From Coriobacteriaceae bacterium AF45-21 (GTDB lineage: Bacteria > Actinomycetota > Coriobacteriia > Coriobacteriales > Coriobacteriaceae), in contig JAQCYU010000001.1 of assembly GCA_027682925.1 (NCBI GenBank), positions 62,001 through 126,000 on the forward strand: a stretch of 64,000 nt of DNA. The letters are read 5' to 3'. This document shows, in pieces, positions 16,246 to 59,036 of the stretch. How positions within the stretch are numbered: position 1 is the stretch's first letter; every line of letters begins with the position of its first letter. The notes below the pieces were generated by a model. The model did no database searches and was not told where the DNA came from. It saw only the letters and a list, made by a program, of their open reading frames with translations. Made by a program: the position numbers and the translations under genes.

Positions 16246-16347
16246 ACAGCGAATGGCACCGCACGCGGATGCCGACAGCAAGACATCCCCCCTCAATACA
16301 CCCTCATGCCCCTTTACTGTTTGCGACCAGAAATGATGAGCTGCACA

Positions 16348-16383
16348 ACGTCGTTAGCGGTCGAATTCGACCTCTGACGACGT
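16348..16383. repeat. 36-bp near-perfect palindrome
   Basis: Two 18-nt halves (16348-16365 and 16366-16383) match as reverse complements at 16 of 18 positions, with no spacer, centred on GAATTC. It could extrude as a cruciform or bind a dimeric protein. It lies at the left edge of the ClpP-VirD4 island. Confidence 0.7.
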
Positions 16384-16524
16384 CACGCGACTCATCGTAT
16401 CCGACCGACAACAGAAAAGGGGCACGTTCGCATAGCGTGGCGCGTGACGGTTGCAAAACCACCCCATTTGAAACAAACGCAAAAAAGTACTTGCAAAGAC
16501 GCGTTCCGACATATAAGTTGATAA

Positions 16525-30442: not shown

Positions 30443-30505
30443 TTGCGGTGAAATACGGTCTATTGGTGCCCTATTTTGGCGCAAACAGACCGTATTCCAC
30501 CGCAA
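30443..30505. repeat. Long hairpin repeat, copy A
   Basis: Arms 30443-30470 and 30478-30505 pair at 24 of 28 positions around a 7-nt loop. The outer 13 nt of the right arm plus its 12-nt flank (GTTATAAAAGGG) are identical to copy B at 31608, while the inner stem differs in sequence yet is still paired. Confidence 0.75.
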
Positions 30506-31607: not shown

Positions 31608-31670
31608 TTGCGGTGGAATAGTTCCTGTTTGGCCCCTATTCTGCCGTAAACAGGAACTATTCCACCGCAA
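31608..31670. repeat. Long hairpin repeat, copy B
   Basis: Arms 31608-31630 and 31648-31670 pair perfectly over 23 bp with a 17-nt loop. The flank GTTATAAAAGGG follows, as in copy A. It begins 12 nt after the aldo-keto reductase stop on the minus strand. Confidence 0.8.
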
Positions 31671-47828: not shown

Positions 47829-47914
47829 GGGGTCTGGAGTATATCATCCCGTCCTCAGACATTCTCGGCCTTCGGCCTGCGAAACTGCGGGCGGAACGAT
47901 ATACTCCAGACCCC
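47829..47914. repeat. Nested inverted-repeat element 3 (before nrdG)
   Basis: Perfect 17-nt arms (47829-47845 and 47898-47914) enclose GTCCTCAGACAT (47851-47862), a small inner dyad GGCC-TTC-GGCC, and GCGGAAC abutting the right arm. The boxes resemble those in the elements at 57564 and 57870. The right arm of the RNA ends 15 nt before the nrdG start. Confidence 0.75.
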
Positions 47915-48091: not shown

Positions 48092-48229
48092 GGCCGCCCC
48101 GTAGCGAGGCCCCGGACCTTTGCTCGATATGAGTTCCGCACGAACAGGAGGCGCCAGTGGCGCCTCCGTCGTGAGCCAGGACTGTCCGAAATAGCGAGTA
48201 AAGGTCCGGGGCCTCGCTACGGGGCGGCC
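48092..48229. repeat. Nested inverted-repeat element 4 (after nrdD)
   Basis: Arms of 35 nt (48092-48126 and 48195-48229) with one mismatch. An inner 9-bp palindrome GGAGGCGCC-AGT-GGCGCCTCC (48147-48167) sits between them. GTTCCGCA and TGTCCGA in the spacers are relatives of the boxes in the other elements, in reverse orientation. The outer edge is 11 nt after the nrdD stop. Confidence 0.78.
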
Positions 48230-57329: not shown

Positions 57330-57419
57330 TGGTGTCGGAGGCGGGACTTGAACCCGCATGACCAAAAAGCGGTCACTAGCACCTCAAGCTAGCGCGTCTG
57401 CCAATTCCGCCACTCCGAC
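57330..57419 (-). tRNA. tRNA-Leu (anticodon GAG)
   Basis: A class II tRNA of 90 nt with CCA. Acceptor GTCGGAG/CTCCGAC, anticodon loop TTGAGGT, a variable arm GACCGC-TTTTT-GGTC and T-loop GTTCAAGTC. Confidence 0.95.
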
Positions 57420-57563
57420 ATGCTATGTTGTTGATTCGCGGTTCGTTTTGTTGGACCCGCGCGTTCAACGAGGAAGATAATAACCTATGATTCGAGAACT
57501 GTGCAAGCACTTTTTTCAAAAAAGTTTACGAATTTGTAATTGCGCAGGTAGATCCGCATGTCC

Positions 57564-57688
57564 GGCCCCGAATCGGTGCTGCCTCCCGGCGCGTCCTCGG
57601 GCATGAGCGATATTTTGCTGCGCACTTCGTGCTGCAAAATATCGCTCCCTCTGCGGAATGCGCCGGGAGGCAGCACCGATTCGGGGCC
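57564..57688. repeat. Nested inverted-repeat element 1
   Basis: Perfect 29-nt outer arms (57564-57592 and 57660-57688). Box GTCCTCGGGCAT (57593-57604) abuts the left arm, and CCTCTGCGGAAT (57648-57659) abuts the right. An inner 14-bp stem (57605-57618 with 57634-57647) fills the middle. Total 125 nt. Confidence 0.85.
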
Positions 57689-57748
57689 TACCAACACATA
57701 CTCCAGGCACAGTTCTCAAACATGTTCTGGGGCTGATGCAAATTTGGT

Positions 57749-57803
57749 GGCTCGGCAAAGCCGAGCCCTTATATGGAGAGGCCGGAGCCAAAGCTCCGGC
57801 CTC
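57749..57803. terminator. Two consecutive GC hairpins
   Basis: GGCTCGG-N5-CCGAGCC (57749-57767), then an 11-bp stem GAGGCCGGAGC/GCTCCGGCCTC (57778-57788 with 57793-57803). They lie between repeat elements 1 and 2 and may terminate opp transcription. Confidence 0.55.
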
Positions 57804-57869
57804 ACTAACTTTCCTATTAGATTAAGTGAGCGATCAAGGAATCTCACTCCCCTCTGCCGCGTTAACGCA

Positions 57870-57993
57870 GGGCCCGCCCTGGTGTTGCTTTTCAGAACAT
57901 TCCGCAGGCGGAGGAAGCCCCACAGCGCGTAGCGCGCAGCGGGGCTTCCGACATGTCCGAGGACGTTCTGAAAAGCAACACCAGGGCGGGCCC
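57870..57993. repeat. Nested inverted-repeat element 2
   Basis: Perfect 29-nt outer arms (57870-57898 and 57965-57993), unrelated in sequence to element 1. ATTCCGCAGGCGGA (57899-57912) abuts the left arm and ATGTCCGAGGAC (57953-57964) the right. These are the element 1 boxes in reverse orientation. Inner stem GGAAGCCCC/GGGGCTTCC (57913-57921 with 57941-57949). Total 124 nt. It begins 17 nt after the oppF stop. Confidence 0.85.
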
Positions 57994-58009
57994 GGACGAG
58001 AACAACCGA

Positions 58010-59036
58010 CTACAGGTCGATGTGCGATCCTTGATCGGGAACGGCTCGGCGAAGTGGCACGCGCAGCAGTGGCCCGGGGCAACTTCCTTAAACTCAGGAG
58101 CTTCTCGGAGCAGATGCCCTGCGCGATCGGGCAGCGCGTGTGGAAACGGCAGCCGGTCGGCGGATCCAGCGGCGACGGCGGATCGCCGGCGAGGATGATG
58201 CGCTTGCGGGTCTTCTGAATATCCGGATCGGGAACCGGCACGGCAGATAGCAGCGACTGCGTGTACGGATGGTGAGGCTCGCTATAGAGCGTCTTCCAGT
58301 CCGAAACCTCGACCATCTTACCCAGATACATAACGGCAACGCGATCGGAGATGTGCTGCACGACGGACAGGTCGTGGGCAATGAAGAGATAGGCCGTACC
58401 GAACTTGTCCTGAAGTTCCTTGAGCAGGTTCAGAACCTGGGCCTGAATGGAAACATCCAGAGCGGAAACGGGCTCGTCGCAGATGATCAGCTTGGGCTTC
58501 AGAGCGAACGCACGGGCGATGCCGACACGCTGACGCTGACCGCCCGAGAACTCGTGCGGATAGCGGTTGATGTGCTCGGGGTTCAGACCGACGACGTCCA
58601 GCAGCTCACGGACACGCTCAATGCGCTCCTCCTTGGTGCCCACGCCATGAATAGTCATGGGCTCGGAGACGATCTCGCCGATGGTCATACGAGGATTGAG
58701 CGAAGCATAGGGGTCCTGGAAGATGAACTGCATCTCACGACGCATGTCCTTGATCTCATGCTTGCTCATCTCGGCAACGTCTTTGCCCTGGAAGAACACC
58801 TTACCTGCCGTCGGCTTGGTCAGGCGCATGATGGTGCGGCCCGTGGTGGACTTACCGCAACCAGACTCGCCGACCAGGCCAAAGGTCTCGCCCGGATAAA
58901 TCTCGAACGAAATGTCATTCACAGCAGAGACGACGCGCTTGGAAAAACGCTTGGCGAACATGCCGGACTCTGCGGGGAACTCCTTAGAAAGATGCTCGAC
59001 CTTCAGCAGCGGAGTGCGCTCGTTATTGTCTGTCAT
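58010..59036 (-). CDS. oppF: Oligopeptide ABC transporter ATPase OppF (two apparent frameshifts near 58042 and 58106)
   Basis: Second ATPase of the oligopeptide importer. Walker A is [20 protein letters not shown], the signature is [15 protein letters not shown], Walker B is [18 protein letters not shown], and the C-terminal oligopeptide motif is [17 protein letters not shown]. After this the frame drifts. Adding one G at about 58106 and one at about 58042 gives [13 protein letters not shown], then [10 protein letters not shown] and a stop at 58010, a normal OppF end (342 residues). Without repair the frame runs on into repeat element 2. The ATG at 59036 directly follows the oppD stop. Confidence 0.87.

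What the first reader, a model, noticed from the sequence alone, without database searches (positions are those of the whole stretch)
57564..57993. Family of foldback elements with fixed architecture, conserved junction boxes and freely variable arms
Elements 1 and 2 are 125 and 124 nt long. Each has perfect 29-nt arms, but the arms of the two share no sequence. What they share are short boxes abutting the arms: GTCCTCGG-R-CAT on one side and CTGCGGAAT on the other, in opposite orientations in the two elements. Each also has an inner stem of its own sequence. Conserved boxes with arms that differ wholly yet stay perfectly complementary are not what one expects of ordinary terminators or MITEs, whose ends are conserved. 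A mechanism that copies the local flank into an inverted duplicate around a core (template switching or snap-back synthesis), or strong selection for the fold, is needed.
Basis: seen in the sequence. Interest (0 to 1): 0.78.

Follow-up and report, generated by a model that had tools for sequence, protein, structure and literature searches.

The report
Nested hairpins copying gene 3' ends
Gut Collinsella bacteria and their relatives carry a family of very long DNA hairpins just after the ends of genes; a short internal motif stays much the same while the two arms change together, and at about a third of the gene-end sites tested the outermost layer is an inverted copy of the end of the gene itself.

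Summary
The elements are real. E1 (57564-57688, +) and E2 (57870-57993, -) have perfect 29-nt arms and the shared boxes, but the arms are not unrelated: 18 of 30 positions match. Two more lie in the window: 47829-47914 + (by model) and 48106-48215 - (by reading only). The family belongs to Collinsella and other Coriobacteriales; one model finds 14 places in the nearest genome. In 22 of 30 locus groups it lies 36-70 nt after the stop codon of a same-strand gene.

Long-form arms stay 97% Watson-Crick while they diverge. G.U and A.C mismatches are equal (24:24); RNase P RNA of the genus gives 251:35. Transversion-type double changes are common. This points to DNA-level homogenisation by template switching more than to stepwise RNA compensation. 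In 8 of 22 gene-end groups, against 4 of 189 Collinsella control ends, the outermost stem is an inverted copy of the coding end. At pfkA the copy is absent from all 36 sites without the element. groEL shows no such copy at any site. Function (3'-end structure or terminator) is inferred.

The parts
57564..57592 (+). E1 main stem, left arm (29 nt)
   Evidence: perfect complement of 57660-57688
57593..57605 (+). E1 box 1 GTCCTCGGGCATG
   Evidence: shared with E2 and the family
57606..57646 (+). E1 inner stem and loop (57606-57621 / 57631-57646)
   Evidence: inverted repeat read; inner stems vary and swap between loci
57651..57659 (+). E1 box 2 CTGCGGAAT
57660..57688 (+). E1 main stem, right arm
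57491..57504 (+). E1 outer stem, left part (upstream region of the tRNA-Leu gene)
   Evidence: inverted repeat I5 with 57707-57720; the outer stem passes the shuffle test in 12 of 17 orthologous copies
57707..57720 (+). E1 outer stem, right part
57965..57993 (-). E2 main stem, left arm (element reads on -)
   Evidence: perfect complement of 57870-57898
57952..57964 (-). E2 box 1 GTCCTCGGACATG
57913..57949 (-). E2 inner stem and loop
   Evidence: inverted repeat I4
57899..57907 (-). E2 box 2 CTGCGGAAT
57870..57898 (-). E2 main stem, right arm
58028..58037 (-). E2 outer stem, left part, in the 3' end of the oppF-type coding sequence
   Evidence: inverted repeat I8; relatives L092 and L110 show a 17-nt inverted copy of the coding end here
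57831..57840 (-). E2 outer stem, right part: inverted copy of the coding end
57834..59036 (-). gene upstream of E2: oligopeptide ABC transporter ATPase (oppF type)
   Evidence: Pfam PF00005, PF08352; in relatives the stop is 44-46 nt before box 1
48106..48215 (-). fourth element, variant boxes (TCCTGGCTCAC / GTGCGGAA), 3' of nrdD
   Evidence: found as a control hit and read; not matched by model R1 at E 0.01 or R2 at E 0.1
47829..47914 (+). third element, opposite orientation to the fourth
   Evidence: R1 35.6 bits; R2 49 bits
48241..50463 (-). gene upstream of the fourth element: anaerobic ribonucleoside-triphosphate reductase NrdD
   Evidence: Pfam PF13597

Best explanation
E1 and E2 are members of an old, dispersed family of nested hairpins of Coriobacteriales that sit directly behind genes, where some relatives have ordinary intrinsic terminators. 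Anatomy, from the inside out: inner stem; an asymmetric internal loop with conserved boxes (TCCTC / TGCGGAA); a main stem of about 29 bp; a second internal loop (CCCAYC / TGCGNTNAC); and often an outermost stem. Shown here: position, recurrence of the boxes, covariation of the arms, replacement of one hairpin by another between the same flanks, and, at 8 of 22 gene-end groups, an outermost stem that is an inverted copy of the coding 3' end. Inferred: (1) the arms stay complementary mainly because DNA polymerase switches template at the hairpin and copies one arm from the other (quasi-palindrome correction), and the same process can extend a hairpin outward by copying its flank; (2) the internal loops, which that process would erase, are kept by selection because something recognises them; (3) in the cell the transcript ends or is protected at these hairpins.
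For: Family and boxes. Position: box 1 is 36-70 nt after the stop of a same-strand gene in 22 of 30 locus groups (which prints up to 6 members a group); the genes read as groEL, pfkA, Fe-dependent alcohol dehydrogenase, grcA-like, pta, fba-like, PFOR, oppF (my reading of translations) and nrdD. At groEL and pfkA, sites not matching my element pattern have a T-run of 4 or more after the hairpin in 7 of 26 and 13 of 39, element sites in 1 of 33 and 0 of 18. Arms: 28 of 32 outer-stem pairs change on both sides across 20 sequences. 103 long-form elements (those with at least 22 of 28 arm pairs) give 2877 positions with 24 G.U, 24 A.C and 28 other mismatches; 9 short forms give 8, 7 and 18 in 251 positions; all 126 elements with at least 18 pairs gave 54, 55 and 123. 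Control: RNase P RNA, 30 Collinsella sequences, Rfam structure, 101 pairs: 251 G.U, 35 A.C, 43 other. Event level 21:21 against 32:5, p = 7e-4; double changes transversion:transition 122:74 against 9:26, p = 7e-5. Coding-end copy: score 12 or more in 8 of 22 groups against 4 of 189 Collinsella gene ends, p = 1.4e-6; two of the 4 are themselves variant elements. pfkA: 17 of 21 element sites against 0 of 36 others. Template switching as a maker and keeper of RNA hairpins is published (PMC8794818, abstract and passages read).
Against: The groEL site shows no coding-end copy in 36 element and 23 other sites, so that step is not general. The equal G.U and A.C counts include related sequences, and a need for pairing in both strands could give the same symmetry: 7 of 30 groups have no same-strand gene on the left and one has it 134 nt away. 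Some double changes compare arms that may have been replaced whole, not mutated. Element tails are not U-rich, so intrinsic termination of the textbook kind is not shown. No transcript data were available. G020 lacks the pfkA element between short GAAAT repeats, so in that strain a deletion is as likely as an ancestral empty site. The coding-end comparison takes the best member of each group (up to 12 orthologues) against single control ends, which favours the elements.
Confidence: 0.6

Rival explanations
1. Structured mRNA 3' elements kept by RNA selection alone: extended terminators or mRNA-stabilising stems whose pairs are compensated step by step, with box-binding by RNA polymerase, a ribonuclease or an RNA-binding protein.
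For: Sense orientation right after stop codons in 22 of 30 groups; extreme covariation; some relatives have T-run terminators at the same sites.
Against: No G.U preference, unlike RNase P of the same genus; many transversion-type double changes; some elements, E1 among them, have no same-strand gene before them.
Confidence: 0.2
2. REPIN-like miniature mobile DNA moved by a REP-associated tyrosine (Y1) transposase, with the hairpin as a single-strand substrate.
For: Y1_Tnp matches in 53 of 65 genomes of the family; dispersed extragenic copies 3' of genes; inverted pairs (E2/E1, 48106/47829, and groups 13/12 between map and infA); whole hairpins exchanged between the same flanks.
Against: Of 19 RAYT-like genes examined (of more listed) none has the element beside it; four have other palindromes close by. 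Model searches of the same 20 loci gave only an E1-type copy near an IS200-type gene (L445), a palindrome without box 1 about 1.5 kb from one Y1 gene (L438) and a weak match to a palindrome beside another (L433). groEL sites carry it across the family and in two genomes of another family. G073 has the groEL element but no Y1 match.
Confidence: 0.1
3. A DNA-structure site: a cruciform or a gyrase or topoisomerase site that relieves supercoiling behind highly expressed genes, as proposed for BIMEs (recalled, not from a call).
For: Position behind genes that I expect to be highly expressed (not measured); no strand asymmetry of mismatches; both orientations occur.
Against: Boxes are asymmetric and orientation is biased to sense; no direct evidence.
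Confidence: 0.08

Closest known systems
REPINs / REP sequences and BIMEs (PMC3116915, passages read; PMC3733652, abstract, passages and section 6 read; BIMEs recalled)
   Same: Dispersed extragenic palindromes, mostly 3' of genes, able to form long hairpins; inverted pairs; [quoted passage not shown]
   Different: REPs have a GTAG or CGTC tag and a short stem, REPINs conserved ends; here the conserved boxes are internal and the long arms vary. No linked RAYT was found.
Intrinsic (Rho-independent) terminators
   Same: Same stretch just behind the stop codon; GC-rich hairpin; T-run terminators occupy the same groEL and pfkA sites in some relatives.
   Different: Hairpin of about 80 nt (short form) to 145 nt (long form), nested internal loops with conserved boxes, and only 1 of 51 element sites with a T-run of 4 or more.
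Template-switch / quasi-palindrome mutations (PMC8794818, abstract and passages; PMC3820800, abstract only)
   Same: Predicts perfect stems, multi-base double changes and new inverted copies; in the yeast study such events were seen only under high transcription.
   Different: A mutation process, not an element family; here it would act repeatedly on one family whose internal loops are conserved.
Collinsella-1 RNA (RF01700; name seen in PMC2864571, passages)
   Same: Structured RNA of the same genus.
   Different: A different sequence and place: one strong hit in each of 3 of 10 genomes searched, none of the three at an element; not listed for 57400-58150 at E up to 5.

Membership tests
REP / REPIN | dispersed extragenic palindrome in many copies per genome | tested here: met
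   14 distinct places in G001 with model R1
REP / REPIN | GTAG or CGTC tag with conserved ends | tested here: not met
   arms and ends vary; conserved boxes are internal. CGTC occurs at box 1 in many copies, but the published CGTC stem (8-9 bp, A/T first) and CCA tail do not fit
REP / REPIN | RAYT gene flanked by the repeat | tested here: not met
   0 of 19 RAYT-like loci; not all Y1 genes were examined
Intrinsic terminator | GC-rich hairpin shortly after the stop codon | tested here: met
Intrinsic terminator | U-tract after the hairpin | tested here: not met
   T-run of 4 or more in 1 of 33 (groEL) and 0 of 18 (pfkA) element sites
Intrinsic terminator | transcript ends at the hairpin | not testable with these tools
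   no RNA data
MITE / foldback transposon | conserved terminal inverted repeats | tested here: not met
   ends vary between locus groups
MITE / foldback transposon | target-site duplication | tested here: inconclusive
   a GAAAT repeat flanks the pfkA element by comparison with G020 only, which also fits deletion
Rfam families (4227 models) | score at the gathering threshold | tested here: not met
   only tRNAs in the window; no plausible family for 57400-58150 at E up to 5
Template-switch maintained hairpin | mismatches symmetric between G.U and A.C; double changes of transversion type | tested here: met
Template-switch maintained hairpin | inverted copy of flank present only where the hairpin is present | tested here: inconclusive
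   met at pfkA (17 of 21 against 0 of 36), not at groEL (0 of 36 against 0 of 23)

The most novel reading that the evidence does not exclude
Self-extending hairpins: a conserved internal loop, recognised by a still unknown factor at the ends of active genes, is the only selected part; everything around it is generated and kept complementary by template switching, which grows the hairpin outward in layers and finally copies the end of the neighbouring gene into its far arm. The repeated boundary YC|GG...CC|TGCG at both nested levels would mark where each layer was joined.
Probability: 0.25. Interest if true: 0.8.

Novelty: new variant of a known kind. Interest (0 to 1): 0.62.

Why it matters
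It gives a natural system with many copies and many species in which the question of how long stems stay perfectly paired can be tested directly: arms that change together, an RNase P control from the same genomes that behaves differently, and sites with and without the inverted copy. It also describes a repeat family at gene 3' ends of common human gut bacteria that five paper searches did not turn up (I saw listings and abstract starts, for only 15 of 88 papers, and passages of PMC2864571). That is a limited search of an open-access library.

Tried and rejected
RAYT link: Y1 genes are common, but none of the 19 RAYT-like genes examined has the element beside it. Because one search used a simple hairpin and box scan, I repeated the 20 loci with both models: an E1-type copy lies near an IS200-type tnpA in G015 (L445), which I take as chance; L438 has a match to a palindrome without box 1 (read); L433 has a weak match to the palindrome already seen beside its Y1 gene. 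Rfam: no family fits. Collinsella-1 was checked because of its name and rejected. Integron attC sites were considered for the hairpin shape and dropped without a test. A shared 7-mer upstream or downstream of the elements was sought and not found beyond shuffles. A second pfkA hairpin type (one place in each of 6 of 20 genomes) is not a second dispersed family.

Controls that I redid: the first gene-end control contained undetected elements; the second (5 of 283) still included loci from other bacteria; the third is Collinsella only, 4 of 189, and two of its four hits are variant elements. The first RNase P control (389 G.U and 5 A.C) used a structure predicted from the same alignment, which disfavours A.C; with the Rfam structure it is 251 and 35.

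Limits: elements were found by their boxes, so box conservation cannot be taken from them; box variation was read at groEL sites, in model hits and in 15 R2 hits, of which 13 have TCCTC...TGCGG and two have one box changed. The 141 entries count one element (L043) twice. Model counts count most elements on both strands and can include other long palindromes. R2 hits in family f2 (6 genomes) were not read; 5 loci of two of the 9 f5 genomes were read. Gene calls come from a codon-usage script of mine. Pattern-negative groEL sites include degenerate elements. One search pfkA sites elements.

Full report
WHAT IS THERE. The window contains the two elements as described: E1 57564-57688 (+) and E2 57870-57993 (-), each with perfect 29-nt arms, box 1 GTCCTCGGRCATG, box 2 CTGCGGAAT and its own inner stem. 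One statement of the finding is wrong: the arms are not unrelated. Aligned outward from the boxes they agree at 18 of 30 positions (shuffled mean 8.8, p = 2e-4). Each element also has a further outer stem. Two further members lie in the window: 47829-47914 + (models R1 and R2) and 48106-48215 -, just behind nrdD; the latter has variant boxes and is not matched by either model at the thresholds used, so its membership rests on reading. So the window holds two inverted pairs: E2 with E1 behind oppF, and 48106 with 47829 behind nrdD.

A FAMILY, AND WHERE. The pattern TCCTCGGNCATN{25,55}CTGCGGAA has 78 matches in 13 of 39 relatives, all in one genus, and none for the reversed control. Other Collinsella species carry a short form in which the inner stem is shorter. 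A covariance model of the long form (R1) finds matches in 45 of 65 genomes of the family and in 3 of 149 genomes drawn from the phylum, all three in the same family; G001 has 14 distinct places. Such a model can also pick up other long palindromes, as one hit shows. A short-form model (R2) finds matches in 48 of 158 genomes of the order: 33 in the family, 9 in family f5 and 6 in f2. Of 15 R2 hits read, 13 have TCCTC...TGCGG and two have one box changed; 5 of the 15 are from two f5 genomes, all with both boxes, and two of those follow a GroEL-like C-terminus. The f2 matches were not read.

POSITION. 141 entries (one element counted twice) fall into 30 locus groups by flanking sequence. In 22 of 30 groups box 1 lies 36-70 nt after the stop codon of a same-strand gene (up to 6 members printed per group). 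The genes read as groEL, pfkA, iron alcohol dehydrogenase, a glpF-like channel, grcA-like, pta, homoserine kinase, an aldolase, oppF, PFOR, thiC, map, rplX and others (my reading of translations). Eight groups do not fit: seven have no same-strand gene on the left, E1's among them, and one has it 134 nt away. E1 lies between the opp operon and a tRNA-Leu gene transcribed away from it.

SAME SITE, DIFFERENT HAIRPINS. At groEL (59 species) and pfkA (57 species) I compared the DNA behind the stop codon. At groEL, long-form species have the long form, others a short form with quite different arms, and some a plain hairpin with a T-run. At pfkA, 12 closely related strains have the box element, 6 have a different long hairpin between the same flanks (CCCATC and TGCGTTTAC), and G020 has neither. 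Element sites rarely have a T-run of 4 or more after the stem (1 of 33 groEL, 0 of 18 pfkA); pattern-negative sites have it in 7 of 26 and 13 of 39 (the groEL ones include degenerate elements). Inner stems also swap: nearly the same arms occur with different inner stems (groups 5 and 7), and the same inner stem occurs at different loci (L169 and L081; L139 and L025).

HOW THE ARMS CHANGE. On 20 aligned elements, 28 of 32 outer-stem pairs show changes on both sides; shuffles and slid controls are far lower. Among 2877 arm positions of 103 long-form elements with at least 22 of 28 pairs, 97.4% are Watson-Crick, with 24 G.U, 24 A.C and 28 other mismatches; 9 short forms give 8, 7 and 18 in 251 positions. 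With the laxer cut of 18 pairs, 126 elements give 54, 55 and 123. RNase P RNA from 30 Collinsella genomes, on the Rfam structure (101 pairs), gives 251 G.U, 35 A.C and 43 other (with a predicted structure 389, 5 and 12). At the level of distinct events this is 21:21 against 32:5 (p = 7e-4), and transversion-type against transition-type double changes are 122:74 against 9:26 (p = 7e-5). RNA compensation is commonly held to pass through G.U (PMC8794818, passage) and so favours transitions. Equal counts are what one expects if either arm mutates freely and is then copied from the other in DNA. A need for pairing in both strands would also give symmetry, and some double changes may be whole-arm replacements; I cannot exclude either.

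THE OUTERMOST STEM. In 8 of 22 groups with a called stop codon (pfkA, alcohol dehydrogenase, pta, homoserine kinase, oppF, group 14, thiC, group 28) the DNA beyond the element holds an inverted copy of the end of the coding sequence at score 12 or more. Of 189 dereplicated Collinsella control gene ends, 4 reach that score, and two of those are variant elements; Fisher p = 1.4e-6 (an earlier control that included other bacteria gave 5 of 283). The comparison is generous to the elements, since it takes the best member of each group. At pfkA the copy is present in 17 of 21 element sites and in 0 of 36 others; at groEL it is absent from all 36 element sites and 23 others. Because the left copy is coding sequence, I infer that the far arm is the copy.

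INTERPRETATION. The published template-switch mechanism (PMC8794818, abstract and passages) predicts perfect stems, multi-base double changes and new inverted copies; a yeast study found such events only under high transcription (PMC3820800, abstract). Both fit hairpins behind genes of this kind. I place termination or 3'-end protection first as the function, on position alone.

KNOWN KINDS. REPs and REPINs are the nearest family, but their tagged, conserved ends and a linked RAYT are not found here. Intrinsic terminators share the position but not the U-tract. Collinsella-1 RNA is a different locus. Five paper searches found no description of this family.

Noticed in passing
window 30443-30505 and 31608-31670: Two related 63-nt hairpins (TTGCGGTG-G/A-AATA...CACCGCAA, score 18 each); a similar hairpin lies behind pfkA in G010, G020 and G044. 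Looks like a second palindromic repeat family.
   Followed up: no
window 16307-16424: A further long imperfect hairpin of 118 nt (score 19.5) without the boxes.
   Followed up: no
window 57834-59036 (-): The oppF-type reading frame departs from its relatives near the 3' end and runs through E2, whereas relatives stop 44-46 nt before box 1. This may be real or a sequencing effect.
   Followed up: partly
L433, L434, L435, L437, L438: Y1 (RAYT-like) genes in short-form Collinsella have other long palindromes near them (several with GGGGACTGTCCC, GGGGACGTGTTCC or GGGGACAGGCAC), a different repeat class.
   Followed up: partly
L262 and L283 (groEL sites of G018 and G059): Long near-perfect palindromes containing GGGGACGGGT lie shortly behind the groEL hairpin, possibly related to the palindromes near Y1 genes.
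   Followed up: no
window 57749-57803: Two compact GC-rich hairpins between E1 and E2 (GGCTCGGCAAAGCCGAGCC; GAGGCCGGAGCCAAAGCTCCGGCCTC), with similar ones at this site in L089.
   Followed up: no
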